64,000 nucleotides of DNA, taken from an uncultured Clostridia bacterium (GTDB lineage: Bacteria; Bacillota; Clostridia; Christensenellales; Pumilibacteraceae). Both the position numbers and the translations under genes were made by a program. The notes beneath the pieces were generated by a model that did no database searches, was not told where the DNA came from, and was given only the letters and a program-made list of their open reading frames with translations. Where the stretch lies: NCBI GenBank assembly GCA_947066105.1, contig CAMSYM010000001.1:124001-188000 (forward strand), given 5' to 3'. Shown piece after piece: positions 8,023-28,219 of the stretch. Numbering within the stretch: position 1 is the first letter of the stretch; each line of letters opens with the position of its first letter.

Positions 8023-8961
8023 ATGAAATACAAAGAGTGGCTACAAGAGTGGCTTAAGAACTATGTAAAGATTTCCGCCAAACAGAGAACGGTATCAAGG
8101 TATACGGAAATTTCAAATGACCACTTGATACCTTCGCTCGGAGAATACGAGTTGCAGTCTTTATCGCCGATGATATTGCAAAAATACATAAGCGAATTGC
8201 TGGAATGCGGAAACCTGAAGACCGGCTATGGGTTATCTTCAAGCTCGGTAAATTCCATAATAACCGTTATTCAAAGCTCGCTCAACGTAGCGTTTAATTT
8301 GGGGTTCATGACGGAAAGAGTGGGCGATAAATTAAAGCGTCCCAAAGCAAATGAAAAAAGTGTAGAATGCTTTTCCGTTGAGGAACAGCGTGTAATCGAA
8401 AAGGCCGTGTTATCCGATAACCGCAGGCATATGTTTGGTGTCTTTTTGTGTTTGTACAGCGGACTCAGAATCGGTGAGCTGTTGGCCCTTGAATGGAGCG
8501 ATATCGATTTCGTAAATTGTACGCTGTCGGTCACGAAAACCTGTTTCGACGGAAAGGATGCAAATGGTGTGTTCGGCAGAATAACCGACAAGCCGAAAAC
8601 CCAATCGTCCTGTCGTATTGTGCCGCTCCCGAAACAAATTATGCCATTGCTTAAAGAGGTAAAGAAAAGCAGCGAATATTTTTTTGTTATATCAAAAGGG
8701 GAGACCGGCTTGTTGGTTCGAACGTATCAGCGTAATTTTAAGTCGCTTCTCAAACGCTTGAACATTGCGCCGCGTGGGTTTCATGCGTTACGCCACACCT
8801 TCGCAACTAGGGCAATTGAATGTGGAATGGATGTTAAAACTCTTTCGGAAATACTTGGGCATAAAAATCCAACTGTCACGTTGAATCGCTATGCACATTC
8901 TCTAATGGAGCACAAAAAGGATATGATGAATCGGCTTGGTAAACTATGTGGTTTGTCGTAA
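8023..8961 (+). CDS. int: Tyrosine recombinase / integrase
   Basis: 312 residues with AGGAGG upstream of the ATG at 8023. The N-terminal about 105 residues form a SAM-like core-binding domain (TVSRYTEISNDHLIPSLGEYEL). The catalytic domain shows Arg149 (SGLRIGELLALEW), Lys near 192, H254-x-x-R257 (HALRHTFATRA), H280 (ILGH) and the nucleophile Tyr290 (LNRYAHS). All catalytic residues are present, so it should be active. It lacks the AP2-like arm-binding domain of Tn916 integrases. It would catalyse site-specific integration or excision. The 455-base region after it contains paired repeats and could hold attachment sequences, but no att core is identifiable without the other junction. Confidence 0.9.
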   Translation: MKYKEWLQEWLKNYVKISAKQRTVSRYTEISNDHLIPSLGEYELQSLSPMILQKYISELLECGNLKTGYGLSSSSVNSIITVIQSSLNVAFNLGFMTERVGDKLKRPKANEKSVECFSVEEQRVIEKAVLSDNRRHMFGVFLCLYSGLRIGELLALEWSDIDFVNCTLSVTKTCFDGKDANGVFGRITDKPKTQSSCRIVPLPKQIMPLLKEVKKSSEYFFVISKGETGLLVRTYQRNFKSLLKRLNIAPRGFHALRHTFATRAIECGMDVKTLSEILGHKNPTVTLNRYAHSLMEHKKDMMNRLGKLCGLS

Positions 8962-9230: not shown

Positions 9231-9341
9231 TGTATAGGTAAACATCGTCATCTATTGATAGATATTACTTTAAGAAATCGATTGAAATACTTGTAGCTTA
9301 GGGCTCGGTACGTAGGGTGGTGGACATAGGATTATTCGGTA

Positions 9342-9361
9342 GTACAAATGTTTATTTGTAC
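9342..9361 (+). promoter_or_regulatory. Hairpin in the leader of the LoaP operon
   Basis: GTACAAAT (9342-9349), loop GTTT, ATTTGTAC (9354-9361): a perfect 8-bp stem 55 bases before loaP. LoaP proteins are known to recognise a hairpin in the leader of their target operon. Whether this one is recognised is inference. Confidence 0.45.
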
Positions 9362-9415
9362 GAAAGGGCGAAGCATACTCATTTTCGTGACTGTCGGCTT
9401 ATTTTGGAGGCAATT

Positions 9416-9976
9416 ATGAGGGAACCTTATTGGTGGTATGTACTATATGTTAAATCAAATACCGAGCATAGAGCATTGAGGAGTTTTCAGAAGTCTATGC
9501 TCAAAAAGACTTTACCGTATGAGATTGAAACATTTTGCCCGGAATCCGAGAAATTCTATAAGGGTAAGCACCTGCGTACATTAGGCAAGACATATATAAG
9601 GCGTCCGATGTTTCCAGGATACATATTCGTGGAAACCAACATGCTAGAAGATGAGTTTAGAGCTCATTCGTTTGATATCATATACAATTCGACAGATATA
9701 ATTCGGTTGTTGCGTAACGGTAATGATGGTAGCATAGCACTTCGGCAGGATGAACGCGAACGACTTGAATATCTATTTAAAGGACGACGGTGTATCGAAC
9801 ATTCTATTGGTTATATTGAAGGCGACCAAATTGTTGTGACAGGCGGTCCGTTGGTTGGATTGGAAAGCATAATCAAGAAAATTAATCGTCATCATAGAAC
9901 AGCACAAATTGAAGTCGATATGTTCGGACAAAAGCAAACGGTAGATGTGCCGTTAGAAATAATATCAAAACAATAA
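9416..9976 (+). CDS. loaP: LoaP-type NusG paralogue (processive antiterminator)
   Basis: 186 residues starting MREPYWWYVLYVKSNTEHRA. The start is set by TTGGAGG upstream at 9416. The N-terminal NGN domain has WYVLYVKS, then the RRPMFPGYIFVETNML segment. The C-terminal KOW domain is EGDQIVVTGGPLVGLESIIKKINRHHRTAQIEVDMFG, followed by VDVPLEI. This matches LoaP, a specialised NusG paralogue that travels with RNA polymerase and lets it pass terminators in long operons for exopolysaccharides or secondary metabolites. Here it is the first gene of a 17.7-kb co-directional operon, the position expected for a LoaP acting on its own transcript. It is distinct from housekeeping NusG by its missing acidic N-terminus and its KOW details. 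Confidence 0.85.
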   Translation: MREPYWWYVLYVKSNTEHRALRSFQKSMLKKTLPYEIETFCPESEKFYKGKHLRTLGKTYIRRPMFPGYIFVETNMLEDEFRAHSFDIIYNSTDIIRLLRNGNDGSIALRQDERERLEYLFKGRRCIEHSIGYIEGDQIVVTGGPLVGLESIIKKINRHHRTAQIEVDMFGQKQTVDVPLEIISKQ

Positions 9977-9998: not shown

Positions 9999-10637
9999 AT
10001 GGCAAGAACAGGTAAAAAAGTTACCAGAGTAGAAAAACAAGCAATTTATGAGATTAACGTCGTAAAATCGTGCCGTGAGAATTATCTTGAAAAGCTTGAG
10101 GAACTACAGAGGAAAATCGACGAAACCGAAGTGCAGTTAAAGCTTCTATTGGAGCGCGGAAAACTGTCTACGGATGCGAGCGAGAAGAAAGCTCTTGCGC
10201 GTGAAATAAAGAAAATCAGAGACAATCTTGAAATAATGAAAGACGATATCGGATGTTTTCAAGATAATGTGGATATGTTTGATGAACTCATTACACTTCT
10301 TGATTCGTTCTTTATGCATGAGCGCTTCAAATATATAGTCAAGAAAATACCGGAAAAGAAATTGCCAGCTATGGTAAAAGATCCTGATAGAAGGGAAGAG
10401 GTAAACGACTTACTGTTATCGTTATTGGAAGACTTTAATACGGCATGGCAAAAATATTTGCACGGTATGAAAAAACGTAAGGAGAAACGTGCGCATATTC
10501 AAACCGTTAAAGAAGAATTCCGCGAAAGGAATGACACGCAGGATAGAGAACTCGATGCAATAATGGCCGAATTCGAATCGTCTGATGAGGATGAGAGCTC
10601 GTCTGCAGAAACAAAGAAAACCAACAAAAACAATTAA
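9999..10637 (+). CDS. Coiled-coil protein resembling ESCRT-III/Snf7, first of a pair
   Basis: 212 residues. A basic N-terminus (MARTGKKVTRVEKQ) is followed by a long helical hairpin: helix 1 about 30-57 (YLEKLEELQRKIDETEVQLKLLL), helix 2 about 63-105. Shorter helices follow, then an acidic C-terminal helix DRELDAIMAEFESSDEDE (about 183-200). The layout of basic N-terminus, two-helix hairpin and acidic C-terminal motif is that of ESCRT-III filament subunits, whose C-terminal helix binds MIT domains. Three downstream proteins start with MIT-like domains. Sequence identity to any ESCRT-III is low by eye, so this is an architectural call. A generic coiled-coil adaptor is the alternative. Confidence 0.5.
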   Translation: MARTGKKVTRVEKQAIYEINVVKSCRENYLEKLEELQRKIDETEVQLKLLLERGKLSTDASEKKALAREIKKIRDNLEIMKDDIGCFQDNVDMFDELITLLDSFFMHERFKYIVKKIPEKKLPAMVKDPDRREEVNDLLLSLLEDFNTAWQKYLHGMKKRKEKRAHIQTVKEEFRERNDTQDRELDAIMAEFESSDEDESSSAETKKTNKNN

Positions 10638-10663
10638 AAATATTTATATGGAGGACATAGATC

Positions 10664-11299
10664 ATGGCTAAAATCAGTAAAGAACTCAAGCAAGAACAGC
10701 AAATTGCGGAAGGACTTGCTACCATTAAGGAAGCAAGAGAGTCCGTAGATGCACTTGCGGCGCAGTATAACGATTGGATTGACCAAGCGGCTGAACTTGG
10801 TGAGGATGAATATTCCGATCAGCTTATTGCAGAGCAAGTGGAGCTCGAAATGTTTTCCGGGGATTTGCAATTTATCGAAGTGCAAATTCGCAAAAATGCC
10901 GTGAGCGCACGTGCGCTTGGAAGGTTAAAAGCCTTGAACGACGTTGTGAGTTCTTGCAAGAACTTGGGCAAAGGGTTGGACCTGAAAAAGATCGGCAAAC
11001 AATTGGCAGGATTAAAAACATCGCTTGACAGTTCCAAAACATCTCTTAGAGATTTGCGTAGCGAATTGTCGGCAACTAAAGATCCTGTTTATACCGATTT
11101 ATTCGGAAAGAAAACCAAAGAAGATCCCAAAGTTGCGGCTAAGATTGCGGCTAAAAAACAAGAACGTGAGGCGCGTCTTGTGATAAAGACGGAAGGGAAA
11201 AAAGTTGCCCCGGTAGATTCCGGTGTGGGCGCAGATACGTCGGCTTCGGATATCGATGCAATCACTGCGATGATAGACGAAGAGCGTAAAAAGAAATAA
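10664..11299 (+). CDS. Coiled-coil protein resembling ESCRT-III/Snf7, second of a pair
   Basis: 211 residues with GGAGGA upstream. The protein is almost all helical. A long first segment is about 1-60 (KISKELKQEQQIAEGLATIKEARESVDALAAQYND). A second runs about 70-115. A third (LAGLKTSLDSSKTSLRDLRSEL) precedes a basic linker rich in Lys/Ala (KVAAKIAAKKQEREARL). The C-terminus SASDIDAITAMIDEERKKK shares the [LI]DAIxA helix with the preceding protein. This suggests two related filament subunits with MIT-interacting tails, recruiting the MIT-like enzymes encoded next. It stops 12 bases before the Vps4-like gene. No signal peptide or membrane segment, so a cytoplasmic, peripheral membrane role is plausible. 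Confidence 0.5.
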   Translation: MAKISKELKQEQQIAEGLATIKEARESVDALAAQYNDWIDQAAELGEDEYSDQLIAEQVELEMFSGDLQFIEVQIRKNAVSARALGRLKALNDVVSSCKNLGKGLDLKKIGKQLAGLKTSLDSSKTSLRDLRSELSATKDPVYTDLFGKKTKEDPKVAAKIAAKKQEREARLVIKTEGKKVAPVDSGVGADTSASDIDAITAMIDEERKKK

Positions 11300-11311
11300 T
11301 AGGTGAATAAT

Positions 11312-12703
11312 ATGCCTGATACAATTATGGATTCTTTTAAAGAGTTCGTTTTGCTGTACAATCAGTATCGCCAAAATGATGATACTAGTGCAGCTTTGCG
11401 CATGGCACGAGAGATAGATAAAATCGCAAAGTCTCAGTGTGCTCGAAACGACATACCGAAACAAATTAAAGATTTCTATTTAACGAGTGCCGCCCCTGTC
11501 AGAGAATGGCTCGCCGAAGTTAAACTCACGGCAGGCGCGAAGAAGAAAAATATGGGCAACGACAGCGAAGATAAAATTAAATCTACGGATTGGTTTGGCG
11601 CTGACGTGCCAAAGCTGACGATGCGAGATGTGGCGGGACTTAACGAACTTCGTAACGAATTTCTTGTAAATATATTCGCTCCGATTTCCCCGAAATATTC
11701 CCCGATATATCAAAAATATCGTAAGGACGTAGGTTTACAAATACTTATGTATGGACCTCCGGGATGCGGCAAAACTCATATTGTCAAGTGTCTTGCCGGA
11801 TCGCTCGGGTGTAAAATTGCTGTTGTTCAAATCAAAGACGTAATGGCAAACCTCGTCGGTGACGGAGCTAAAATTATAGCCGAAATATTCGAACAAGCAA
11901 AGGAGTATGATAAGTGCATTATCTTCTTTGACGAGATCGATGCGATAGCCGCAAGCAGAGAGGACGATGAGAGTCGTCACACAAAAGAGCAATTAACTAC
12001 GCTTTTGACTAATATGGACGGATTTACTTCGGCAACGAAACCGGGGCAAATCCGTATTATTATTGCGGCGACTAACAGACCTTGGGTGCTTGACAGTGCT
12101 GTTAAACGCGGCGGAAGATTTGAAACGCAGATTTATGTGCCACTGCCTGATTATGACGCTCGCATAAAACTAATAGAACTCGCACTCGGTAAAGATGAAA
12201 AAATTAAGGGGAGAGTCAACGTTCCTTGTGCGGAAGATGTAACTGTAGAATGGCTTGCCGAAAAACTTGACGGTTACGCAGGAGCAGACATTAAAGCAAT
12301 ATGTAAGCAAATTATTAATCGTCCGCTTCGCCGCGAAATCGAGCATTTACGTGATAACGATGCACGGATGAGTGATTGCATAACAAGAGCCGATTGCGAA
12401 GAAGTTATCGGTAAGTACATAAACGCCATTACGGACGAGATGTTATTCTTTTACGATGCATATACGGCGAATATGGATATCGGTGAATATCTTGAACTTT
12501 ATGAGCCGAAGGCGCGAGCAGAAAGAGAAGCGGGCAAAACGTTGCCTCCGCACGTTGTTCGTTGGTTGAAGCGTTTTGATGATGTCGAGGCGGAAAAGCT
12601 CACTAAAAAATCGAGTAACGAAGAAGGCAAAGTTGACAAGGTTGAAAAACTTATTACCGTTTTGTCTGAAATTAACAATACGTTGAAAGAACTGAAAAAT
12701 TAG
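11312..12703 (+). CDS. Vps4-like AAA ATPase with N-terminal MIT-like domain
   Basis: 463 residues; the start at 11312 follows AGGTGA. Residues about 1-75 form a three-helix MIT-like bundle (MDSFKEFVLLYNQYRQND, SAALRMAREIDKIAK, IPKQIKDFYLTSAAPVREWL). A linker leads to a classical AAA module: Walker A GPPGCGKT (148-155), Walker B IIFFDEID (203-210), sensor 1 in AATNRPWVLDSAVKRGGRF (about 252-270) with the paired arginines, then IYVPLPDYDAR. The phrase PWVLDSA..R plus YxPLP is typical of the Vps4/katanin branch and unlike FtsH or ClpX. An alpha-helical C-terminus of about 80 residues follows. It would hydrolyse ATP to pull on substrates such as the coiled-coil proteins encoded upstream. Proteasome-type or CDC48-type ATPases are alternatives. 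Confidence 0.75.
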   Translation: MPDTIMDSFKEFVLLYNQYRQNDDTSAALRMAREIDKIAKSQCARNDIPKQIKDFYLTSAAPVREWLAEVKLTAGAKKKNMGNDSEDKIKSTDWFGADVPKLTMRDVAGLNELRNEFLVNIFAPISPKYSPIYQKYRKDVGLQILMYGPPGCGKTHIVKCLAGSLGCKIAVVQIKDVMANLVGDGAKIIAEIFEQAKEYDKCIIFFDEIDAIAASREDDESRHTKEQLTTLLTNMDGFTSATKPGQIRIIIAATNRPWVLDSAVKRGGRFETQIYVPLPDYDARIKLIELALGKDEKIKGRVNVPCAEDVTVEWLAEKLDGYAGADIKAICKQIINRPLRREIEHLRDNDARMSDCITRADCEEVIGKYINAITDEMLFFYDAYTANMDIGEYLELYEPKARAEREAGKTLPPHVVRWLKRFDDVEAEKLTKKSSNEEGKVDKVEKLITVLSEINNTLKELKN

Positions 12704-12704
12704 T

Positions 12705-13670
12705 ATGGGACCTTCCGATTTATACGCACAATTTGATACGGCTTATAAAAATGCCAAACTTTTAGCAAAGCAAAATGAAGCTCTTCTGGCACGCGATTAT
12801 ATTATCACATGTATGGAAATATTGGGCGAGCTTTATAAAACGGCAGATAGCATAATGGAGCGTGCGAAATTGTATGCGCATATTCGCGATTTTAAGAAAA
12901 TCTCGGCATTAATATTTGAAGAGGGAATTTCTGCCGGAGTAAAGACTTGGTTCGGGATATCGGAAATCGGCGAAAACGGTAGAGCAAAAGTCGAGAATCC
13001 TTCACGGATTGAAAAAACTATGGAAGACAATTCAATCAATTGGGCTGCCGATATTTTTGCAAAGAACAGTCCTTCCGTAGTCATTGTTACAGCAAAATCT
13101 GGGTCTATTATATCCAATGGAACGGGTTTTGTTATTTCGGAAAAAGGATATTTGCTGACGAATGATCATGTCGTATTTGATGAAAGTCGATGTGAGTATT
13201 ACAAAAAAATTTCTATTAGTGCTTATGGATGTAAGGATAGTATTCCTATAGAGATTATCAGTTCCGATAAAAAAAGCGATGTGGCTCTATGTCGCTTTGA
13301 TAATAATTTGGCGGGAAATATTCCTGCAGTGAAACGAATACCCGACTATTCGAAATTATTATCTGGGTATGCTGTTGTTGTGATAGGTAATGGGCTTTCT
13401 ATGGGGCTCGCCCCTCTTACTGGTACAGTAAAACTACCACATGACGATGCAGATAATCTTGTTACTACGGTTCCTTCTAATCATGGGGATTCCGGTGGAC
13501 CTGTGTTTAACAGCAAAGGGGAATGCGTTGGGATAAACAAATCCATAACCGTATCGGTAACGCGAGGCACAAATACGGTAGAGGCACAGGGTATTACGAA
13601 TGCTACGCCTATGGATAAGATCGAAGAACTACTTAACAAATGGTGTAAGCAAAATGCAATCGAACTTTAA
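12705..13670 (+). CDS. MIT-like domain fused to trypsin-like serine protease
   Basis: 321 residues, starting one base after the Vps4-like stop. Residues about 4-75 form three helices (YAQFDTAYKNAKLLAKQNE, ARDYIITCMEILGELYKTADS, MERAKLYAHIRDFKKI) resembling the N-termini of the neighbouring ATPases. Residues about 113-300 are a DegP/trypsin-fold protease with the complete triad: His155 (LTNDHVV), Asp192 (KSDVALC), Ser263 (NHGDSGGPVF). There is no signal peptide, membrane anchor or PDZ domain, so the protease is predicted to work in the cytoplasm, unusual for this family. The MIT-like domain probably brings it to the same partners as the ATPase. Proteolytic switching of a system component is a reasonable guess. 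Confidence 0.75.
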   Translation: MGPSDLYAQFDTAYKNAKLLAKQNEALLARDYIITCMEILGELYKTADSIMERAKLYAHIRDFKKISALIFEEGISAGVKTWFGISEIGENGRAKVENPSRIEKTMEDNSINWAADIFAKNSPSVVIVTAKSGSIISNGTGFVISEKGYLLTNDHVVFDESRCEYYKKISISAYGCKDSIPIEIISSDKKSDVALCRFDNNLAGNIPAVKRIPDYSKLLSGYAVVVIGNGLSMGLAPLTGTVKLPHDDADNLVTTVPSNHGDSGGPVFNSKGECVGINKSITVSVTRGTNTVEAQGITNATPMDKIEELLNKWCKQNAIEL

Positions 13671-13686
13671 TGAGGTTATATAAATT

Positions 13687-15264
13687 ATGACGATTGAAGA
13701 ATTGAGAACATATTTTAGAACGGCAAAAGATTTTGCTAAGATTGGGAATCCCGCAAACATCCCGGTAGTTACGGCAAGTATCGCGGCAATTTCGGATTAC
13801 ATAAAAGAAGTATATAAAACAGCTTCGGCTCTCGATAGGGCAAAATGCAGGCTACAATTTGAAAGCTTTGATGCGATAATCGAAATTATTAAATCGAGTG
13901 GGCTTGCAGACAAGCGGGTACTTGCCTTTTTCGGTCTCGCGCCTTCTTCAGCGGCAGCTCCGTCATTTTCAGACATTATGAGTGGAAAATACGGAGAAGC
14001 TCAGAGTACACCCACACCTCAACCGACGGTAACAGAAAAACCTAAAATTTCGGAAGGAGGTGCGTCAATTCCGCAACCAGCCGCTCCGAAAAAAGCCACA
14101 CCGAGAGCTGATGAAACTACACCGGTTGTACCTGTAGGTGTTGTTGGAGTAGGTAATGGCGGCGGCGAGGATAAACCTATATTTACCCCCGATGAATTGC
14201 GAGGTTTTATAGGACAACAACATATCGTAAAACCGATATTGAAGGAAATAGCCATTGCGAAGAATAAAGGATTAAGACATTTAGATAATATCTTGTTGTT
14301 CGGAAATCCGGGACTCGGCAAAACCACGCTTATGAAGCTTATTGCTAAGGAGCTTGGCGTGCGTTTTGAAATTCTCGATTGCTCACAGTTCCGCAATAGT
14401 CAGCAATCTCTTAAGGCATTACAAAATTTCCTGATTCGTGTTGCTCGTGAATGCGAGCCTGTTGTAATAGCTCTGGACGAGATACATATGCTTACTGAAG
14501 AGTTGCAGTCGAGTTTGCTGACATTACTCAACGACAGAGTGTATGTTTCTCCGCCCGATGTAAGCGGGAATATTAAACGTATTCCAATTGAAGAATTTAC
14601 GTTCATTGGTGCTACGACAAATGACGAGGACGTAATTCCGACGATTAAGAACCGCTGTTTACGTCTTACGTTCCAAATGGTAGATTACACGCCGGAAGAG
14701 CTCAAGCGTATTTATAAGAATAAAATAGCATCTAAAGGTTTGACAATAACCGACGAAGCACTTGATACATGTATTCCTCGCAGTCGCGGTGCAATTCGAT
14801 ACGTTAATTCGATTGTAGATGGGCTTGATAGCGCTCTTTACAATGACAATGGTGAACGCATATCAACGCATATCGATTTGAATGTTGCGCTGGGATATTT
14901 CAAAGAAAAGGGAATAGATCCAATTGGTCTCACCGATAAAGACCTTGAAATTCTGCACGTACTCAATGATTATACGGGCGATGCAATGGGCGCTGATGTC
15001 CTTGCGGCGCGTGTTGGGCTTGAAACCAAAAAGTACGCATCCGAATACGAAAAATACTTGATAAAAATCGGATTTATAAATGTGTCAGGCAAAGGTAGAG
15101 CTTTGACTGAGCGGGCTATTAAATATCTATCTGGCAGTGGAAGCGGAGCAAAGGCATCGGGTGCAAGTATTGTGCCGCCTATTGAGTCAACTGATGCAGG
15201 AGATGACGATTCAACTGATGAGACTGTGCCGAAAGATATCGTTGATGATTTATTTAGTGATTGA
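13687..15264 (+). CDS. MIT-like domain fused to RuvB-like AAA+ ATPase
   Basis: 525 residues. Residues about 1-72 are helical and resemble the protease N-terminus; both contain Y-K-T-A then R-A-K (EVYKTASALDRAK versus ELYKTADSIMERAK). A Pro/Ala/Thr-rich linker of about 80 residues follows. The AAA+ core has FIGQQHIVKPILKEI, Walker A GNPGLGKT (206-213), Walker B ALDEIH (about 262-267) and sensor 1 GATTNDEDV. The C-terminal winged helix (GLTDKDLEILHVLNDYTGDAMGA...IGFINVSGKGRALTERA) matches that of RuvB, the Holliday-junction motor. RuvB itself is about 340 residues with no such N-terminus and pairs with RuvA, absent here. It is therefore a RuvB paralogue redeployed in this system rather than a repair gene. 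Confidence 0.75.
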   Translation: MTIEELRTYFRTAKDFAKIGNPANIPVVTASIAAISDYIKEVYKTASALDRAKCRLQFESFDAIIEIIKSSGLADKRVLAFFGLAPSSAAAPSFSDIMSGKYGEAQSTPTPQPTVTEKPKISEGGASIPQPAAPKKATPRADETTPVVPVGVVGVGNGGGEDKPIFTPDELRGFIGQQHIVKPILKEIAIAKNKGLRHLDNILLFGNPGLGKTTLMKLIAKELGVRFEILDCSQFRNSQQSLKALQNFLIRVARECEPVVIALDEIHMLTEELQSSLLTLLNDRVYVSPPDVSGNIKRIPIEEFTFIGATTNDEDVIPTIKNRCLRLTFQMVDYTPEELKRIYKNKIASKGLTITDEALDTCIPRSRGAIRYVNSIVDGLDSALYNDNGERISTHIDLNVALGYFKEKGIDPIGLTDKDLEILHVLNDYTGDAMGADVLAARVGLETKKYASEYEKYLIKIGFINVSGKGRALTERAIKYLSGSGSGAKASGASIVPPIESTDAGDDDSTDETVPKDIVDDLFSD

Positions 15265-15265
15265 T

Positions 15266-15994
15266 ATGAAAACGATAAAGACAAAAAAGCAGCTTTTGGC
15301 TGCTATTCAAAATTGCTGTGACGGTAAACATATCAAGGATGACGATAAGCAATCTGTTTTTGACACAAACACTAGGCTTATTTCATCTATGTTGAGCGTG
15401 CTACCTGATAACTATTCATTTCCTGAATGGGATTGCTTAATTTTCGATAATTCCTTTGAAGACTTTATCATAGTAAGTAGTCTAAGTGATTTAAAAATCC
15501 GATTGGCACTAATGTTTAGCTTAATAAGTGAAGAGGCGAAAAGATATAAGAGTGTGGTAAATGATGAAAAAAATCGAAGAAGTCAAGTTGAAGCATTTGA
15601 AAATCAACGCAATGAGCTAAAAATATCGCGTAAAGAAGCAATTAGGAAAAGGTCAAAAATAAAAAACATTATTTTTTGGGCAACATTGATTATAGTTGTT
15701 GGTGTTGTTATTGGTACTGCAATCTGTGCAATTATTCAATGGGTTCAAATGAGCAATGGGAACATCGCCGAGCCCAAATGGGACATGATAGCATTAGCTG
15801 GTATTTTGGATGCGGCAGTAGGTGTTATCGGATTTGGTATCGAACGAGTTACAGATCATATGTCTTCCAAAGAGATACAGGATATAGACAAACGGGAAGA
15901 AGAGATGTATAAAAAAATATCTGATAATTTATTTATTCAAAACAATAGTGATGGCGCATCAGGATATCAGGATTGCACTGTTATAAATTTATGA
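15266..15994 (+). CDS. Two-helix membrane protein with GYQxCxVIN tail
   Basis: 242 residues; ATG at 15266 one base after the previous stop. The N-terminal about 100 residues are soluble and helical. A charged helix (SQVEAFENQRNELKISRKEAIRKRSK) precedes two membrane segments at about 133-158 and 173-193. A short cytoplasmic tail follows. Its last residues GASGYQDCTVINL resemble the start of the next protein (GSTGYQGCVVINI). The shared short motif at a C-terminus and an N-terminus of adjacent gene products suggests a docking strand or a common processing site. No known family. It may anchor the GTPase complex at the membrane. Confidence 0.55.
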   Translation: MKTIKTKKQLLAAIQNCCDGKHIKDDDKQSVFDTNTRLISSMLSVLPDNYSFPEWDCLIFDNSFEDFIIVSSLSDLKIRLALMFSLISEEAKRYKSVVNDEKNRRSQVEAFENQRNELKISRKEAIRKRSKIKNIIFWATLIIVVGVVIGTAICAIIQWVQMSNGNIAEPKWDMIALAGILDAAVGVIGFGIERVTDHMSSKEIQDIDKREEEMYKKISDNLFIQNNSDGASGYQDCTVINL

Positions 15995-16008
15995 ACGGAG
16001 GCGGAAAT

Positions 16009-18555
16009 ATGCAAGAGCCCCAAAATCAATTTGGACAAAAGAACGAGAAAGGTAGTACTGGGTATCAAGGATGTGTTGTAATTAATATAAACGGTAACCG
16101 CTATACGGCTACAAGCAATGTTTTTACCGCGCTGTCAGATATACTATCAATACAATTAAAGAATGCAAGTGAATCATGTTCCAAAATTTTTATACAGCAA
16201 TCAGTTTCTGAAGAGGTTTTGATAAAAGAAATAAATGAAAAAATTTCAAATATTTTTCAGTTATCGTTGGACTTAAGTGATCCATTTCATAGATTGAAAC
16301 TTGAAGGGAAAGTCGAATTTTTTCATTTGATTTCAAAATCAAAGAGCAAATCTGATTCTAACAAAAAAAAGAATGATGTAAGCACAGGCGCAACAACAGA
16401 AATTGATAATATCACTGAAAAAATTAAGAATTCGTTAAGAGCATATAACCCACAATTGGTCGATGATAATAAAATAAAGGAAGATTTGAAATCCTTAATT
16501 GGAGTAGAGGAAGTTCTAGATCCATTTGATTTTGATTTTGAAACAGTATATAAAAAAGTTTTAAAAATTGCATCAGACAATGCAAATAAAGGGTATTATG
16601 CAATAATAGAGTGCCTTAAAACGCTTGAAATACAATTGGAACAATATAAAAGGCAATCAAAAATTAATTTTTTTGAGGACGATCCTCTTACCCCATTGGA
16701 TATGGAGTTTAAATTTGCTATTTATGATGAGAATGGGAGAAATATGTCATATGGGAAAGAGCAAAAGGGCGGATTTGAATTTTTTATTGAGCGTGGAGGT
16801 TCGCAGGGATACTACGATATTTGTTGTGTTATTCATGATTGGAACAATGCATTGGTGGATTCAAAAGATATTAGGGAAGAAAGTGATGACGTGATTCTAT
16901 CTCCCGACAATACGATTAATATTATTCCGACATCTCCGATTATCAAACAAGAGCAATTACGAAATTTTCAAGTTAGTGGTGATGTATTTTTTGAGTATTA
17001 TAAACTTGCTAGATATCGAAAGTACGCAATTAATTCGAATTGTGAAAAAAATAGTTTTTATGGATATCAAGAATACACAAAAAATGGTGGTAAAATAATA
17101 ATAAAGTCAGGTGTTAGAAACTATTTTGAGAAAGGTGAAATAGTATTATCAGGATGTCGCGACACACAACACCCCAGTGAAATAAAATATACGTTTTATG
17201 TTAGTTTGAGAGAAAACAGTCAAGCGTTTACAAATCAAAATACAAGTAACAACAACAATGGAGATATAACAAGTAAACAGAAAATAGTATTAGATAGAAA
17301 CCTAAGATGTCCGTATTGTGCACAAGAATTAGGAATTAAACGTTGGCAAAAACGAAAAAGATATTGCAATGGAGGAAAGACACAAATAGAAAAAGGTATT
17401 GCGTGTAAGAATAACCACTATCTTGATAAAAATTTTTTTGATGCCAGCGATAATGTGTCTGCAGAATTCTGTTTTGGTATGGATTATCAACCTGGTGAGC
17501 CAGAGTGCCCCCTATTTTTGCCTGAGAATTATGCTAAAAATGTTAGTGGGGTAGTATCATTAATAGGCAAGGCTGGTAGTGGGAAATCAGTATTTATTTC
17601 GAACTTTTTCGGTATGACAAATAAAGATATGAAAGGGAATATAAATTGGAATAGCACGATTGGTCCATTTATTAGCAATAGTAGTTGCTCCTTTTATATG
17701 CCAAATGATGACTGGGAAAAAGCACAAAAAAAATTTTTTAAGGATGATAGTAGTGGAACCGCTTATTCGGACTATTTATCGGTTCTTTATGAAAATGGAC
17801 CTAAACGTTCGCCTGAAAATAAAAATTCTGCACTAATTCATTTGCCATTTATTTTGGAAATGCGCAATATTAATAACGGTGTTACTAGTTATATGTCTTT
17901 CTTTGACTGCCCAGGAGAGTATATCTATAACCAACCAGATAAAGACACGCCGGCATTGTTTAAATTTCAGTCTGATCCGAATGCTGCTTTACATCCTGTA
18001 TCTAATTCAGATGCGTATATCTTGTTTATTGACCCTACGGACAGCAATGACGCTACAGATAAAATAGACGGTCGAATTGAAAATGCAACTCATATAGTGG
18101 ATGAATTAAAAAAGGCTATTGGTGATGTTGAATGTAAACAGAGAGTCGTAGCAGTGGTTTTTAGTAAATTTGATGTATGGTTAAGTCAGCTTACAGAGAA
18201 ACGAAATCAAAATGTTGATGAGTTCTTGTCTATAGTACGTTGTTCTGCTCCTGTAGAAGGTAAAAACAGGGTTGATTACCAGGGGTCAAAGACACAAACT
18301 TATATTGATGCGTGTTCCAATGCGATAAGGACTTACCTGTATAGCGCAGATGGGATAGCGTTTGATGCATTAGAGAAATCATTAAATGGTTTTGGTTCGC
18401 ACAAATATTTCTTGGCTTCCGCATTAGGGAGAGCTGGTGCCCTTCGGTTTAATGGTACAGGTAAGACACCTTCGATTCTATATCAAACGAAGTCTAATTA
18501 TAATGTTGATGTAGTAGCGCTTTGGTTGGCGGTGCAGCTCGGCATAATTAAATGA
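16009..18555 (+). CDS. Large GTPase with zinc ribbon, TRAFAC-like, of a GAP1-type system
   Basis: 848 residues; start at 16009 after CGGAGG. An N-terminal GYQGCVVININ strand and a helical region are followed by a beta-rich domain (about 225-330). A zinc ribbon starts CPYCAQELG (Cys434/437) with a second half CKNNH. The C-terminal GTPase domain has P-loop GKAGSGKS (520-527), G3-like FFDCPGE with Asp633, and G4-like SKFD (719-722). These are GTP-binding signatures, although SKFD differs from the usual [NT]KxD. Large GTPases encoded next to a GAP1-like protein are known from predicted NTP-dependent conflict systems. The next gene looks like such a partner. Probably a GTP-gated sensor or switch at the membrane. 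The coding sequence is notably AT-rich. Confidence 0.65.
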   Translation: MQEPQNQFGQKNEKGSTGYQGCVVININGNRYTATSNVFTALSDILSIQLKNASESCSKIFIQQSVSEEVLIKEINEKISNIFQLSLDLSDPFHRLKLEGKVEFFHLISKSKSKSDSNKKKNDVSTGATTEIDNITEKIKNSLRAYNPQLVDDNKIKEDLKSLIGVEEVLDPFDFDFETVYKKVLKIASDNANKGYYAIIECLKTLEIQLEQYKRQSKINFFEDDPLTPLDMEFKFAIYDENGRNMSYGKEQKGGFEFFIERGGSQGYYDICCVIHDWNNALVDSKDIREESDDVILSPDNTINIIPTSPIIKQEQLRNFQVSGDVFFEYYKLARYRKYAINSNCEKNSFYGYQEYTKNGGKIIIKSGVRNYFEKGEIVLSGCRDTQHPSEIKYTFYVSLRENSQAFTNQNTSNNNNGDITSKQKIVLDRNLRCPYCAQELGIKRWQKRKRYCNGGKTQIEKGIACKNNHYLDKNFFDASDNVSAEFCFGMDYQPGEPECPLFLPENYAKNVSGVVSLIGKAGSGKSVFISNFFGMTNKDMKGNINWNSTIGPFISNSSCSFYMPNDDWEKAQKKFFKDDSSGTAYSDYLSVLYENGPKRSPENKNSALIHLPFILEMRNINNGVTSYMSFFDCPGEYIYNQPDKDTPALFKFQSDPNAALHPVSNSDAYILFIDPTDSNDATDKIDGRIENATHIVDELKKAIGDVECKQRVVAVVFSKFDVWLSQLTEKRNQNVDEFLSIVRCSAPVEGKNRVDYQGSKTQTYIDACSNAIRTYLYSADGIAFDALEKSLNGFGSHKYFLASALGRAGALRFNGTGKTPSILYQTKSNYNVDVVALWLAVQLGIIK

Positions 18556-18565
18556 GAGGTATTTT

Positions 18566-20308
18566 ATGATAATTAGATCCGCTTATTATAGTATATATTC
18601 TAATGAGCAATGGGGATATAAAGATGCGATAGGCAGCAGTTCAATTGATAGGAAACTCATGGAAACCTATATGCAGAAGGTTTTATATGGCGGATTTTAT
18701 TTTAATCCTACATCACATGATATTTTTATCTCTTCGGGAGTAGTACCAAGAAAGGGTGAAACGCCATCTATAAAACTGGATTCAGACGATCTAATTATTG
18801 GTGACGAAGCGGATGGCAATCCAATAGAGTATTATGGGAAGAATTATATTGTTGATTTTATATACTCTAATAACGATGAATTTATCAATTCTTTACAAGA
18901 TGATATGAAACCCATCGGAAAATATATTCGTGATGGCAAGGCAGTTCAAAAACAAGCAATCCTGTATGACAATAAAGAGTTATTACGCTATATTTTTGAT
19001 GCAAAACTAACTAACATTGTATGTGCTATTGTTGATGCAATTTTAAGTGGGAAATCAGTAGTGTTATATGGTCAAATACAAGATAGAAAAGACTTGCTTA
19101 ATATTTTGTTCTACTCGTTACGGTGTTTACCTCCAAAATTAGCTAATTCAATAATAATTAATACAAACATAAAAAATGGAAACATTGAAAAAGAACAATT
19201 TATAGGTTATATGACAAACTGTATGAATGCTGATGGCGTAGATTTCATCAGTATTTCGGATTGTGAAAAAGCTGAATATAAACCAAGTCATTTCTATACT
19301 ATGTATTTAGAATGGCTAATTGGTATTAAAGGAGTCATAAATTTTGATGAAACATGTTTCTCAGGTGAACATGAAATTGAAAAACAATTAAATGTTATGG
19401 CTATCAATAATTTAGAGCTCGAAAGTGAAAAAGGTAGTGGAAAGGTGAGAATCGAGCAACTGCAAGCGATCGTTAAGCTAATGAGCAATAATGATATTCT
19501 CAGCATTATAGAAGAGCAGAATCTGACGGATGCGAGACGTGCGTTACTTGAGAAATGTATAAGAGAAATTGATTCACTGAAATATATATATATCTGCAAT
19601 GCTACGCAATTACACGAAAATATTGATAGCGCCAAATTTATAATGAATGAATCGACAACCGCAGTTACTATTACAGATTTTTTAGAGATTGAGAAATTTT
19701 ATAAAGAGTATTCATTAGAAATTAAAGCTTTGGAATTTGTTAAAACTGCTTTTTTACAATGCGTGTCAAAGGTTAAAGAATATGATGAAAAAGTATTTGA
19801 ATTAGTATACCGGTTAAAAATCTATCTAAATGTCGATATGGGCGAAATGGGTTTTGTTTTTGTTGACAAAACACATAGCAAGTACAACGAATTAGATAGA
19901 ATTAAAGAGGGTGAAAGCAATCTAAACGTAAAAACAAATGAGAGCATTATAAATATTAACAAGCGTCAAACGGCAAAGTGGTTTTTTCAGAGTTCTTCAT
20001 TTGCGAGCGCAGTCTCTCTAATTATACCAATTCTCATTGGTGCAATGCTTATTTCTGTTCCAGAGAAAGTTTGGAAATATTTTGCGGTCATAATGAACGT
20101 TAATACTTGGTATGTAATGCCCGTAGTTTTAATTGTTGCACTCGCATTGGCGTTTGCGTTTTATTTAATTCCATATTTCATTATGCGAAAAAATACGGTC
20201 CATCTTAATGGTTTTTCTAATATTGACTCTACTGGGGTAAGTTGCATATGCATGTTGGCAGTATTGATTCCCATTATAATATTTGTTGTGTTTTCTGCAA
20301 CCGTATAG
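18566..20308 (+). CDS. GAP1-like GTPase-associated membrane protein
   Basis: 580 residues. The N-terminus (AYYSIYSNEQWGYKDAIGSSSIDRKL) and the segment at about 160-215 (ILSGKSVVLYGQIQDRKDLLNILFYSLRCLPPKLANSIIINTN, split here for length) follow the pattern I associate with GAP1-N/M proteins: a Gln/Tyr-rich start, then a loop with LP-x-x-A/R before a beta strand. A helical middle follows. Three hydrophobic segments near the C-terminus (about 470-495, 505-535, 550-578) anchor it in the membrane. It would pair with the GTPase encoded 10 bases upstream. No Walker or GTPase motifs of its own. The GAP1 assignment is by pattern and context. Confidence 0.5.
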   Translation: MIIRSAYYSIYSNEQWGYKDAIGSSSIDRKLMETYMQKVLYGGFYFNPTSHDIFISSGVVPRKGETPSIKLDSDDLIIGDEADGNPIEYYGKNYIVDFIYSNNDEFINSLQDDMKPIGKYIRDGKAVQKQAILYDNKELLRYIFDAKLTNIVCAIVDAILSGKSVVLYGQIQDRKDLLNILFYSLRCLPPKLANSIIINTNIKNGNIEKEQFIGYMTNCMNADGVDFISISDCEKAEYKPSHFYTMYLEWLIGIKGVINFDETCFSGEHEIEKQLNVMAINNLELESEKGSGKVRIEQLQAIVKLMSNNDILSIIEEQNLTDARRALLEKCIREIDSLKYIYICNATQLHENIDSAKFIMNESTTAVTITDFLEIEKFYKEYSLEIKALEFVKTAFLQCVSKVKEYDEKVFELVYRLKIYLNVDMGEMGFVFVDKTHSKYNELDRIKEGESNLNVKTNESIININKRQTAKWFFQSSSFASAVSLIIPILIGAMLISVPEKVWKYFAVIMNVNTWYVMPVVLIVALALAFAFYLIPYFIMRKNTVHLNGFSNIDSTGVSCICMLAVLIPIIIFVVFSATV

Positions 20309-21379: not shown

Positions 21380-24300
21380 ATGGAAACTCGAAAGAAGATA
21401 AAAATATTTACTTGGTTATTTGCATTAATTTCAATTGGCATTGCTGCAATCTTTGCAGTGATTTTTGGCTTGGTAGCTAAAGAGCGACAGACAGTCAATT
21501 CTGAATTAACGATACTGTCAGTTGGTGTCCCTAATTATTCTTACGCAGTCAATAATGATGATAGCGGATCTTTTGATATTTTTTTAACTGACAATTCAGG
21601 TAATCTCGTCAAACCTGAAAGTATAGATAGTTTCATTTGCGACAAAGCTTTTATTGCTAAAAACGGCGAAAGTAAGTCAGTTATAGTTAAGACTCGTGTA
21701 GACGCAAATGGTTCGATTCATTATAGTGTAGATAATGAGTATACAATTGAAGATGCCGTTAATAAGTTTGATATAGTTAAGTTAACTGTTGGTGTTACAT
21801 ATCAAGGTAAGTCTTACACCACGGATATTAATCTGCGTGTTACGGCTACTCCTAATTATAGCTTAAAATTTTATTATAATACTCAGGTTGGCGATTATAG
21901 GCAAGGCCCGTGCTCAGATCTTTTGATTGGGGCAGGAAATAAAATTGATTTGGCAGTATCAGACGCAAATGCAAATGGCGCGGATATAGATTTAGATACG
22001 AAAATTGTCGCAAAAGAGTTACTGAACAGTTACGAATTTGATGGTTGGTATATACTTGATTCAGATGGAAACTCCACGAGACGCAAGTTGGATCCAAATG
22101 ATTATTTTGATATAAGTGATTTGCATATCCAAGAAGAAAACGACGGGATAAAAAATGTAGCGGTAGTAGCACAATACAAGACTCAACTGTTATTAGACGA
22201 CGATATGGGAGAAAGAAGATATTTGGCGCTCAATGGTGGAGAGGGTTCTTTCGTATCAAACAAACAGAATGCTGCCGATATTTATTTTAATGAGCAATTT
22301 CCTATTAATCGCAGTTATCTGCCGAGAGAAAGTAGTAAAAATGGTTGGACCTTTGTTGACTGGTATTCTGAGCCGGCTGGAGAAATAATCGACTATTTGG
22401 ATGATTCCGGTAGATTTATTATGAAGAATCCGCATTTATATGCGAAATGGAAAGGGGATATTAAACTTGATACCATTTTTGAAACGATAGATTTTGGTTC
22501 CGAAAGTGCTGTAATTGATAGATCCGATGTTACAAATACCACGTTGATTATACCCAATGTTACTTATCGCAGTGATGTGATTTTGCCGACTTTGAACGAT
22601 GTTAAATATTCGCATGGTGGATCATTTGTTGGCTGGTACACGAGAAACGGCGAAAATGATGTGCCGGTTTCTGGTCACGAATTTGTTTTGAATACTGATA
22701 CAAGAATTTATGCAAAGGTTAATTTTGATATAGAATTGGATAATCAAGGGACTTCCGTCTCTGCAAAAAATGCAGTGATAGAGTATGGTTATAATGACGA
22801 ATCGCTTGGAACTATTGTTGGTAGCTTGCCGTATCCGCAAAATACAGTAGAAAATGGCTGGAAATTTGAAAAGTGGAATACAACATTTGACGGGACCGGT
22901 GATACAATAGAAGCTTTTTGGAATATTAATCCGTATGAGTTGTCGAATCCTAATAAGAGTGACTTAATTTTGTATGCTAAAAGATCTACGAATTTATATT
23001 TATATAGGCAGATAGATGTAAATGGATTAAGCACAGTTACTCCAGAAACTAAAACTATATATTACAATCGTGTTTTAACAGATGCTATAATACCTTCGTC
23101 ATTGCCAGATATTAATGGATGGCATTATAATGGTTACTACAAGGTTGATAATAAAGATCTTAGTACAAAAGTAATAACTTTAACCGATAGTGCGATTAAA
23201 GACACAGATGTTTATATCGGTCCAGGAGAATTGGAAATAGGGGCTAATTGGTCGGCTGATGTTTTGCTGAATACAATTTTTAAAGGGACTTTAAGACAAT
23301 CTGTTGTCTATAATCAAGCCCCTAACTTTCCTACAGAAATATCCTATGTGTATGGCAACGGTAGTAAAGTTGGTACATTTATGGGGTGGTATATTGATGG
23401 TAAAAAGATTGATAATTCTGTGGCCTTTCAGTATGCCTTAAATAATGAGATTTACGCTAAGGTAAAATTTCCATTAGAGTTAAATTACAGATTAATGGCT
23501 CCTTCTGATAAGACTTACTATATAATCTATGGTGATAATAAAGAAGATAGAAGTGGGGTTGGGGAACTTGAAACAAAATTACCTGAGGAGTTGGATAAAA
23601 AGTTTAATTGGTCTTTTGTAAATTGGAATACCGAGAATAATGGTAGCGGATCTTCAATTGTCGATACCTGGGAAATAAATCCATATGAGAATGTTTTGTC
23701 ATTATACGATAATTGGAGTATTGATTTAAATATATATAGGAAATTAGATGAACAAGGGCAATATAGCCGTGAAAAGCTTAAGGTAATTACGGTGAAGTAT
23801 GGTGCACATCCAGAAATTCCGACTACATTAGAGGCGGAGGGGTGGACGTATGAAGGTTGCTATAAGACCCTTGGCCATGATGATGCCAAAATTCTGACTA
23901 CTACTCCGTATATTTCGAGAGATGGGGAAACGGATTTATTTTGCCAATGGTCTCGAAAAATAACACTAAAGATAACTGATGTTTCAACGGATGAAAATAA
24001 AAATACGACAATTAAAGTTATTTACGATGTAATACCCACGGAATTGGCCGCCGTAAATCCGGAATATGATAAGGGTGGGCAGCTCTCAGGTTGGTATTCT
24101 TTGCCATATGGAAATGGTGAACAAGTGTTTACAGATAGTGCGTTTACCTTAACAAAATGTGACACACTGTATAATAAAATTATTTTTAGAATATCAATGG
24201 ATCCTTTTAATGGCTTAAATAAAGAGGATGTTAGTTATGGCGGATATGAAAATTATAGCGTCACTTACGGAAAAAGTTTACGGGAATCGGGGATACTTTC

Positions 24301-27227: not shown

Positions 27228-27659
27228 ATGAAACAGCACCATCAAATTAGTTTCGAAGAAGCAATGAAGGAAATCGATAAGAGGCGCAAGAGAGAAAAAC
27301 CGAAAGGTCTTCTGGATATTCTTCTTGACCAGGATAACAAAGATCCTATCGTTTTAACGGATGAGAAAGGGAAGCAGTTGGCTTTTGAACAGGTCGCTAT
27401 TATTCCGTATGACGTTGAAGGCGATAAAATCCTGTATGTGGTATTGAAGCCTATAACCAAGATAAAAGGTATAGCCGAAGACGAGGCCGTTGTATTCAAG
27501 GTGATTGAGGACGAGGTCGGAAATGCCGTTCTCTGCGTCGAGAATGACGAGATTGTCGCTATTGAGATATTCAATAAGTATTACGATATGCTTGAAGAAG
27601 CACGTAAAAATAACCCTAAAAAATCGACGAAAAAACGCAAAGGAGGCACATCAACATGA
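27228..27659 (+). CDS. DUF1292-family protein
   Basis: 143 residues from MKQHHQISFEEAMKEIDKR; the start follows AAAGGAGG at 27228. The central part (DPIVLTDEKGKQLAFEQVAIIPYDVEG, ILYVVLKPITKI, EDEAVVFKVIEDE) is the DUF1292 pattern, a small Firmicutes domain of unknown role. A basic tail KKSTKKRKGG ends the protein. It opens a second gene group with ClpP, an AAA-like protein and a VirD4-like ATPase, and overlaps the ClpP start by four bases. A TATACT -10 at 27193-27198 lies upstream, but its -35 is weak. Confidence 0.7.
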   Translation: MKQHHQISFEEAMKEIDKRRKREKPKGLLDILLDQDNKDPIVLTDEKGKQLAFEQVAIIPYDVEGDKILYVVLKPITKIKGIAEDEAVVFKVIEDEVGNAVLCVENDEIVAIEIFNKYYDMLEEARKNNPKKSTKKRKGGTST

Positions 27660-28219
27660 AAGAAGAATTTTCATCATTATATTCACTTAAGCGGAACACT
27701 ATCAATCTTTTCGGTGCGATTGACGATCGGATGGCGGAGCTTGTCATAGCTCAGCTACAGTATCTCGAAGATAAAGAAGTCGGCGAGATCATAATGCAGA
27801 TAAACAGTCCCGGCGGTAGTGTTTCGGCTGGGCTCGCAATCTACGATACGATGAACTACATAAAGGCGCGTATCGTAACGGTTGGAGTCGGTATGGCGGC
27901 CTCGATGGGCGCGTTCTTGCTTTCGGCAGGCAGTAAAGGATATCGTCGCGCAACGGAGAACACAGAGGTGCTTATCCACCAACCACTTGGCGGAGCACAA
28001 GGACAAGCCAGCGATATAATTATCGCGGCCAATCATATCAAGAGAACACGCGAAAATCTCAATCGTATTCTTTCCGAAAACACCGGCAAACCGATGCGTG
28101 TTATACAGAAAGATACGGACAGGGATTTTACAATGACGGCGCGACAAGCACTTGAATACGGACTTATCGATGAGGTTATTCCGTCGGTAAATAAAGCGAG
28201 AGGTGATATCAATGTGTAG
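27656..28219 (+). CDS. clpP-like: ClpP-family serine protease paralogue
   Basis: 187 residues. The ClpP core is intact: INSPGGSVSAGLAIYDTM, VGMAASMGAFLLSAG with the catalytic Ser83, LIHQPLGGAQGQASDI with His108, and DTDRDFTMTARQALEYGLIDEVI with the catalytic Asp (153-157 region). It is slightly shorter than chromosomal ClpP at its C-terminus. ClpP is a barrel protease that needs an AAA+ unfoldase to feed it. No ClpX or ClpA is encoded here. The next gene encodes an AAA-like protein without a Walker A motif. It is probably an element-specific paralogue degrading particular targets, possibly using the host unfoldases. The start overlaps the DUF1292 stop. Confidence 0.85.
   Translation: MKEEFSSLYSLKRNTINLFGAIDDRMAELVIAQLQYLEDKEVGEIIMQINSPGGSVSAGLAIYDTMNYIKARIVTVGVGMAASMGAFLLSAGSKGYRRATENTEVLIHQPLGGAQGQASDIIIAANHIKRTRENLNRILSENTGKPMRVIQKDTDRDFTMTARQALEYGLIDEVIPSVNKARGDINV

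What the first reader, a model, noticed from the sequence alone, without database searches (positions are those of the whole stretch)
9999..15264. ESCRT-like module on a bacterial mobile element: two filament-like coiled-coil proteins, a Vps4-like ATPase and two more MIT-like enzymes
Seen: two adjacent coiled-coil proteins with the ESCRT-III layout (basic N-terminus, helical hairpin, acidic C-terminal helix), then an AAA ATPase whose core (PWVLDSA, paired arginines, YVPLPD) is of the Vps4/katanin type and whose N-terminus is a three-helix MIT-like bundle. Two further enzymes in the same operon (serine protease, RuvB-like ATPase) start with similar bundles. Known: in eukaryotes and archaea Vps4 binds C-terminal helices of ESCRT-III through its MIT domain and takes filaments apart. 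Inference: this operon encodes a bacterial counterpart with proteolysis and a second motor on the same docking principle.
Basis: partly seen in the sequence, partly recalled or inferred. Interest (0 to 1): 0.9.

Follow-up and report, generated by a model that had tools for sequence, protein, structure and literature searches.

The report
Bacterial ESCRT-like scaffold with docked enzymes
A five-gene cassette on mobile DNA in Clostridia and related bacteria appears to encode a look-alike of the ESCRT machinery, a filament-type protein plus three enzymes that carry ESCRT-type docking domains, set among genes that look like an immune or cell-death system.

Summary

Corrections: the AAA core is nearer Cdc48/PAN than Vps4; its pore loop lacks an aromatic in 33 of 35; hairpins are not basic; CC1's fold is untested; docking, filaments and membranes are inferred. 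New: variable sensor/effector genes follow, a small membrane protein's C-terminus matching the next protein's N-terminus (0 of 10,000 permutations), as in bacterial amyloid signalling. Best reading: an ESCRT-like docking scaffold in a conflict system.

The parts
9317..9976 (+). NusG-family protein directly upstream (possible operon-specific antiterminator of the LoaP kind; LoaP is recalled)
   Evidence: Pfam NusG E 4.7e-12; no relative in the other 34 loci by tblastn at 0.01, some of which have little upstream DNA
9999..10637 (+). CC1, helical protein; by eye a hairpin (no Pro or Gly in residues 10-53, one Gly in 60-117) and an acidic tail; fold not predicted
   Evidence: ORF; homologues in 31 of 34 related loci, two genes in five of them; 9 Pfam families at E <= 1, none over its cut-off
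10664..11299 (+). CC2, ESCRT-III-like helical hairpin protein
11252..11296 (+). CC2 C-terminal tail, candidate docking motif
   Evidence: BLOSUM column score 2.0-2.4 in blocks 191-210 against 0.8 and 1.0 in linker blocks 151-160 and 181-190; short low-confidence helix 197-207
11303..12703 (+). AAA ATPase of the classical clade with an N-terminal three-helix bundle
   Evidence: Pfam AAA; CDC48/PAN-type profile scores; present in 34 of 34 loci because it was the query
11303..11545 (+). MIT-fold N-terminal domain of the AAA ATPase
12705..13670 (+). HtrA/trypsin-like serine protease with MIT-fold N-terminus
   Evidence: Trypsin_2 1.3e-16; His155, Asp192, Ser263 kept in 32 of 32
12705..12956 (+). 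MIT-fold N-terminal domain of the protease, plus a short fourth helix
13687..15264 (+). RuvB-like AAA+ ATPase with the same N-terminal domain as the protease
   Evidence: RuvB_N and RuvB_C; N-terminal profile against the protease's: hhalign probability 99, E 4.2e-18; Walker A lysine and Walker B DE kept in 27 of 27
15266..15994 (+). small membrane protein, candidate effector (start chosen by eye inside ORF 15137-15994); its last 22 residues match the N-terminus of the next protein
   Evidence: hydropathy maximum 2.8; own-pair score 66, next best 33
15973..18555 (+). DO-GTPase2-like protein with the matching N-terminal motif (about 16024-16089), candidate switch or sensor
   Evidence: DO-GTPase2 E 5.2e-6, 26.7 bits, just under the 27-bit cut-off; pair test
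18566..20308 (+). protein after the DO-GTPase, in the position of a GAP1-type partner; no family match
   Evidence: only MXRA7_helical at E 0.18; counterparts in L028 and L030 match no Pfam family at 0.05

Best explanation
A mobile, five-gene ESCRT-like docking module inside a conflict-type operon. CC2 (and probably CC1) are helical-hairpin subunits that assemble into a scaffold. The exposed C-terminal tail of CC2 (and perhaps of CC1) recruits three enzymes through MIT-fold N-terminal domains: a Cdc48/PAN-like AAA ATPase that remodels or takes apart the scaffold, an HtrA/trypsin-like protease that cuts scaffold-bound clients, and a RuvB-like motor. The variable genes that follow (a small membrane protein with a short motif matched in its neighbour; DO-GTPase, LRR, Sel1, TIR-like, Hsp70-like or helicase proteins) are the sensors and effectors whose release or restraint the scaffold controls. 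Shown here: gene set, order and co-occurrence; kept active-site residues; shared protease/RuvB N-terminal domain; conserved CC2 tail; pairwise motif matching. Predicted: CC2 hairpin and the MIT folds. Inferred: polymerisation, tail-to-MIT docking, scaffold disassembly, client proteolysis, conflict function.
For: 34 related loci keep the order: CC1 in 31, CC2 in 33, protease in 31, RuvB-like in 26 of 34 (several contigs end early). Of 396 genomes of the order, the strong matches of CC2 and of the protease/RuvB N-terminal domain are the same 11. Structure: of the 30 of 50 listed rows that align to CC2 only, 19 are ESCRT-III, PspA or Vipp1, and the first 11 are all ESCRT-III; for the AAA N-terminus the three best natural chains are Vps4 MIT domains (4u7y and 2v6y by title, 2w2u by recall); for the protease N-terminus 18 of 50 rows are MIT domains (some by recall), at ranks 1, 2, 4 and 5 among others, rank 5 being Calpain-7, a eukaryotic MIT protease. 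Foldseek gives MITD1 and Vps4 MIT probability 1.00 for the protease bundle. Walker A kept in 35 of 35 AAA proteins, catalytic triad in 32 of 32 proteases, Walker lysine and DE in 27 of 27 RuvB-like proteins. CC2 tail more conserved than the linker before it. Neighbours: DO-GTPase2 (just below cut-off), LRR_5, Sel1, TIR_2 (below cut-off), HSP70, ResIII/DEAD. Motif pairing 57.3 against 25.9, 0 of 10,000 permutations. Mobile setting: tyrosine integrase, serine recombinase and conjugative coupling protein in the window.
Confidence: 0.5

Rival explanations
1. Not ESCRT at all: a AAA-unfoldase/protease conflict system (of the IetAS or NTPase-plus-trypsin sort) with helical adaptor proteins. The hairpin and three-helix bundles converge on common shapes, or the protease/RuvB bundle descends from another helical domain such as that of the GlyRS alpha subunit, and the tails are ordinary adaptor-type peptides.
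For: No sequence link to MIT, Snf7 or PspA; AAA matches PADLOC IetA models at 5.9e-40; GlyRS first in Foldseek for the protease bundle; designed bundles, 14-3-3 and TPR domains score close to MIT; hairpins not basic.
Against: ESCRT-III leads for CC2 and MIT leads among natural chains in the VIA lists for both bundles, two halves of one known docking pair in one operon; the same docking-type domain is fused to two unrelated enzymes; the CC2 tail is conserved at the extreme C-terminus. IetAS uses a subtilase (recalled), not a trypsin-type protease.
Confidence: 0.27
2. A membrane-remodelling or repair machine (PspA/Vipp1- or Cdv-like) that serves the mobile element or host envelope, for example during conjugation or after membrane damage by the neighbouring membrane protein.
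For: Fold match of CC2 to ESCRT-III, PspA and Vipp1; a conjugative coupling protein in the same window; a membrane protein next to the module in many loci.
Against: Hairpins carry no net positive charge on average worth the name; protease and RuvB-like motor are not parts of known prokaryotic membrane-fission systems (recalled); the neighbours scanned are of conflict type.
Confidence: 0.15
3. The AAA, protease and RuvB-like proteins act on nucleoprotein or DNA of an incoming element, CC1/CC2 being a coating filament and the RuvB-like winged helix binding DNA.
For: RuvB_N and RuvB_C domains with kept Walker residues; a ResIII/DEAD helicase downstream in L038.
Against: The other neighbours scanned are LRR, GTPase, Hsp70-like or unassigned proteins, no nuclease among them (20 proteins scanned of 369 non-module ORFs); no DNA-binding family in CC1 or CC2 at E <= 0.1.
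Confidence: 0.08

Closest known systems
Archaeal Cdv / eukaryotic ESCRT-III + Vps4 (PMC10936438, abstract and passages seen)
   Same: hairpin subunits with C-terminal tails, MIT-fold AAA ATPase encoded next to them
   Different: bacterial; AAA core nearer Cdc48/PAN, non-aromatic pore loop, no basic hairpin; protease and RuvB-like motor carry MIT-fold domains. [quoted passage not shown] the text treats PspA/Vipp1 as bacterial members of the ESCRT-III superfamily
Calpain-7 with ESCRT-III IST1 (PMC10586806, title and start of abstract in the listing)
   Same: a protease that works with an ESCRT-III protein; its MIT domains (recalled) rank fifth for the protease bundle
   Different: cysteine protease (recalled), eukaryotic, acts in abscission; here a trypsin-type serine protease in a five-gene operon
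PspA / Vipp1
   Same: bacterial ESCRT-III-fold proteins; PspA and Vipp1 rows are among the structural matches of CC2
   Different: no PspA profile match; PspA's AAA partner is PspF (recalled); no MIT-fold enzymes known to me
DO-GTPase / GAP1-N2 conflict systems (PMC7159879, passages and section 29)
   Same: DO-GTPase2-like protein, membrane proteins, Hsp70-like proteins in related loci
   Different: in the main text ESCRT, MIT domain and RuvB do not occur; GAP1 is not recognised here
Bacterial amyloid signalling sequences (BASS) with BELL effectors (PMC7889193, passages)
   Same: small membrane protein with a C-terminal motif matching the N-terminus of the adjacent protein
   Different: neighbours are LRR, Sel1 or GTPase proteins rather than NLRs; motif families not compared; amyloid formation untested

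Membership tests
ESCRT-III superfamily (CC2) | long alpha1-alpha2 hairpin followed by further helices | tested here: met
ESCRT-III superfamily (CC2) | sequence recognised by Snf7 or PspA profiles | tested here: not met
   4 Pfam families at E <= 1 for CC2, neither Snf7 nor PspA among them
ESCRT-III superfamily (CC1, CC2) | net basic hairpin core (feature recalled) | tested here: not met
   window residues 21-105: CC1 -5, CC2 -7; family means +0.9 (36 CC1) and -1.1 (34 CC2)
ESCRT-III superfamily (CC2) | C-terminal MIT-interacting motif after a flexible linker | tested here: inconclusive
   conserved C-terminal tail after a variable linker, low-confidence helix; not tested against a MIM profile
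ESCRT-III superfamily (CC1) | hairpin fold | not tested
ESCRT-III superfamily | polymerisation and membrane binding | not testable with these tools
   needs protein
MIT domain (AAA N-terminus) | three-helix MIT fold | tested here: met
MIT domain (protease N-terminus) | three-helix MIT fold | tested here: met
MIT domain (RuvB-like N-terminus) | three-helix MIT fold | not tested
   not modelled on its own; inferred from homology to the protease domain
MIT domain | recognised by Pfam MIT (PF04212) | tested here: not met
   absent from the families of 32 AAA N-termini (25 of 25 shown) and of 31 protease N-termini (25 of 27 shown); the genome search finds one weak hit, outside the module
MIT domain | binds ESCRT-III tails | not testable with these tools
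   no complex prediction available
Vps4/katanin clade AAA | core closest to Vps4/CdvC | tested here: not met
   CDC48 164, PAN 160.2, FtsH 154.5, CdvC 135.6 bits; p97 rows lead in PDB (60 of 250 shown)
Vps4/katanin clade AAA | aromatic in pore loop 1 (feature recalled) | tested here: not met
   aromatic (KYVG) only in L021 and L022; 33 of 35 have L, V or I
Vps4/katanin clade AAA | Vps4_C helix/beta domain | tested here: inconclusive
   not among the 25 of 29 Pfam families shown for the AAA
IetAS | AAA paired with a subtilase (recalled) | tested here: not met
   AAA hits IetA models, but the protease is trypsin-like
DO-GTPase/GAP1-N2 systems | DO-GTPase plus GAP1 | tested here: inconclusive
   DO-GTPase2 26.7 bits against a cut-off of 27; next protein has no family match
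BASS-type amyloid signalling | matching motif at effector C-terminus and neighbour N-terminus | tested here: met
   15 membrane-protein pairs, own mean 57.3 against 25.9, 0 of 10,000 permutations, own partner best in 8 of 15; 18 other pairs 25.0 against 21.4, 12 of 10,000
BASS-type amyloid signalling | amyloid formation | not testable with these tools
   needs peptide assays

The most novel reading that the evidence does not exclude
A bacterial ESCRT with its own tail-and-MIT code and built-in proteolysis: polymerising CC1/CC2 recruit an unfoldase, a protease and a second motor to one scaffold that gates amyloid-type membrane effectors, making it a mobile immune or cell-death machine with the same docking logic as eukaryotic and archaeal ESCRT-III, Vps4 and Calpain-7.
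Probability: 0.3. Interest if true: 0.93.

Novelty: new variant of a known kind. Interest (0 to 1): 0.8.

Why it matters
[quoted passage not shown] A bacterial set would show either transfer of the docking pair or its independent invention, and it would join ESCRT-type scaffolding to proteolysis and to conflict-type effectors in one small, mobile operon. It makes the question of what a minimal ESCRT-like scaffold can do outside membrane fission directly approachable in a laboratory bacterium.

Tried and rejected
Sequence routes to MIT: PF04212 over the own genome (one hit, 18.5 bits, on another contig, cut-off 30; the same loose search rang in 12 of 14 control genomes, over the cut-off in 2), Pfam on 32 AAA N-termini and 31 protease N-termini, PDB profile searches (TPR designs, inflated by repeats; 7 weak hits, none a MIT). 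All negative. No direct profile comparison with a MIT or Snf7 alignment was made, because none was in hand. The RuvB-like N-termini were not scanned on their own.

CC1 against CC2 by hhalign: no relation. A shared tail motif of CC1 and CC2, which looks good by eye in the window and L014: rejected over 31 loci.

Phage or plasmid origin: close-relative scans of viral contigs with CC2 and AAA found none. The AAA alignment brought 118 viral relatives, 80 kept, all 30-39% over the AAA core; I took them as generic AAA proteins without looking at their neighbours. CC2 of the window in plasmids, and CC2 of L027 in plasmids and phages, found nothing. CC2 in 398 genomes drawn over the phylum: the own genome and two weak partial hits.

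BFVD viral structures: nothing significant; a Snf7 family protein of an environmental Megaviridae sample at rank 4, E 0.48.

NusG as a general module part: only in the window by tblastn. Promoter scan upstream: 6 sites against 5.0 in shuffles.

A three-gene alignment from L018 was dropped because CC1 rows spilled into CC2 columns.

Rows left out: of 43 loci, nine (L048-L056) with partial or weak AAA matches were not used. N-terminal alignments hold 32 of 35 AAA (without L028, L034, L047), 31 of 32 protease (without L020) and 25 of 27 RuvB-like (without L042, L043) proteins, left out for doubtful starts. The CC1 alignment holds 35 of 37 hits (without the first hit of L017 and of L038). L038 was left out.

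Literature: nine searches. Searches looked for bacterial ESCRT, MIT or Vps4 systems; among the titles listed I saw none describing this module, and the six exact phrases occur in no held paper. The library lacks most subscription journals and all bioRxiv preprints.
Full report
Setting. The window is bases 124001-188000 of contig 1 of a 2.05 Mb, 28-contig genome. It carries mobile-element genes: a tyrosine integrase at 8023-8961, a conjugative coupling protein at 29743-31500 and a large serine recombinase at 60131-61927. The module lies at 9999-15264, just after a NusG-family gene.

The observation. Five co-directional ORFs are present as described. Pfam names the third (AAA), fourth (Trypsin_2) and fifth (RuvB_N, RuvB_C); CC1 and CC2 have no family over its cut-off.

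Conservation. CC2 was found in 7 of 151 genomes, the own one included, and in none of the 19 other genomes of the genus. A scan with the AAA alignment gave 43 loci, of which I kept 34 (L014-L047, 42-82% identity) and dropped nine with partial or weak AAA matches (L048-L056). They come mostly from MAGs labelled Clostridia, with some labelled Clostridiales, Oscillospiraceae, Mollicutes, Anaeroplasmataceae, Acholeplasmatales or Bacilli, and one labelled Alphaproteobacteria. CC1 is found in 31, CC2 in 33, the protease in 31 and the RuvB-like gene in 26 of the 34, in the same order; several contigs end before the last gene. In ten loci one to three other genes sit between protease and RuvB-like gene. 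In 396 genomes of the order, CC2 matches 12 and the protease/RuvB N-terminal domain 13; the 11 strong matches of each are the same genomes, and the remaining one and two are weak. This is partly circular, since some of these genomes gave the alignments, but no genome has one without the other at strong score. Across 398 genomes of the phylum only the own genome matches strongly, so the module is rare and patchy.

Protease and RuvB-like N-termini. Their profiles match each other (probability 99, E 4.2e-18) but not the AAA bundle (probability 9.6 and 1.0). The protease N-terminus folds with pLDDT 93.3 and pTM 0.81 as helices 3-22, 26-46, 50-73, 77-82. Eighteen of 50 VIA rows are MIT domains (katanin, Calpain-7 and 2w2u assigned by recall), at ranks 1, 2, 4 and 5 among others; an SRP chain, AIP TPR, Kusta0087/0088 and cytochrome b562-type bundles score nearly as high. 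In Foldseek the GlyRS alpha subunit ranks first (E 0.11, 27% identity) and MITD1 fourth (E 0.22, 16%, probability 1.00, rmsd 1.2 over 67 columns); GlyRS is not among the 50 VIA rows, but the window protein alone has a weak Pfam match to that family (E 0.18). So MIT is the best-supported single fold for both bundles, short of proof.

Tails. CC2 ends in a conserved stretch (window DIDAITAMIDEERKKK; other clade DIDYAGIVAEENKKK) after a variable linker. CC1 has an acidic tail in the window, but CC1 and CC2 tails do not share a motif over 31 loci.

Enzymes. Walker A and the RGGRF box are kept in 35 of 35 AAA proteins; pore loop 1 is non-aromatic in 33 of 35. Profile scores favour CDC48, PAN and FtsH over CdvC. 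The protease triad is kept in 32 of 32. In the RuvB-like proteins my first patterns matched 20 of 27 for each Walker motif; read in the alignment, the Walker A lysine and the Walker B DE are kept in 27 of 27.

What surrounds it. In the window the operon continues into a small membrane protein, a DO-GTPase2-like protein, two unassigned proteins and a 1664-aa repeat protein. I scanned 20 neighbours from related loci, of 369 non-module ORFs (window and 34 loci): BspA-type LRR_5 proteins with Sel1, TIR_2 (below cut-off) or zinc ribbons, Hsp70/actin-like proteins, a DO-GTPase2 (below cut-off), a GTPase and a ResIII/DEAD helicase; several matched nothing. Thirty-three small-to-large neighbour pairs were found; in the 15 with a membrane segment the small protein's C-terminus matches the N-terminus of the next large protein far better than chance: mean 57.3 against 25.9, 0 of 10,000 permutations, own partner best in 8 of 15. 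The 18 without one, module genes included, gave 25.0 against 21.4 (12 of 10,000), so a faint background exists. This layout is that of bacterial amyloid-signalling pairs (PMC7889193, passages) and fits the DO-GTPase conflict systems (PMC7159879, section 29). An integrase of one family lies in 7 of 35 loci, and at least one of the window's element clusters c3, c4, c6 (coupling protein) or c7 (ClpP-type) in 9 of 35.

Mechanism. I think the module works like ESCRT: a hairpin scaffold whose tail recruits MIT-fold enzymes. Because the hairpins are not basic and the cargo genes are of conflict type, I place its job at control of sensor/effector proteins rather than membrane fission. Docking and assembly are inferred. 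The chance that the ESCRT-like docking reading as a whole is right I put at 0.5, and the immune-gating version at 0.3.

Membership. It is not filed as a member of ESCRT-III/Vps4: sequence profiles, basic core and AAA clade were tested and not met. It remains a good candidate for something that works like it.

Noticed in passing
window 15266-15994 and 15973-18555; L027, L028, L033, L037, L039, L042, L044, L045, L046: C-terminus of a small membrane protein matches the N-terminus of the next, large protein (own score 50 or more in 10 of 15 pairs), with about seven different motifs by eye: candidate amyloid-type signalling pairs.
   Followed up: partly
window 9317-9976: NusG-family gene immediately before the long operon; no relative near the module in the other 34 loci.
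   Followed up: partly
window 21380-26374: 1664-aa repeat protein (Listeria-Bacteroides repeat match below cut-off) whose C-terminal part looks by eye like a HINT/intein-type domain.
   Followed up: no
window 39158-41032 and 41060-43420: Adjacent AAA (MoxR-like by eye) and CobT-type VWA proteins, another possible chaperone pair on the same element.
   Followed up: no
window 27656-28219: ClpP-type protease gene near the coupling protein; its cluster c7 occurs in 4 of 35 loci.
   Followed up: no
AAA pore loop 1 of the module: Aromatic residue kept only in L021 and L022 (KYVG); L, V or I in 33 of 35.
   Followed up: partly
L017, L027, L038, L043, L046: Two CC1-type hits in one locus; those of L017 and L038 are weak.
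   Followed up: no
window 15235-15261; L014 and L015 RuvB-like C-termini: RuvB-like proteins of the window, L014 and L015 end in a short acidic tail (DIVDDLFSD type) not seen by eye in the other 24.
   Followed up: no
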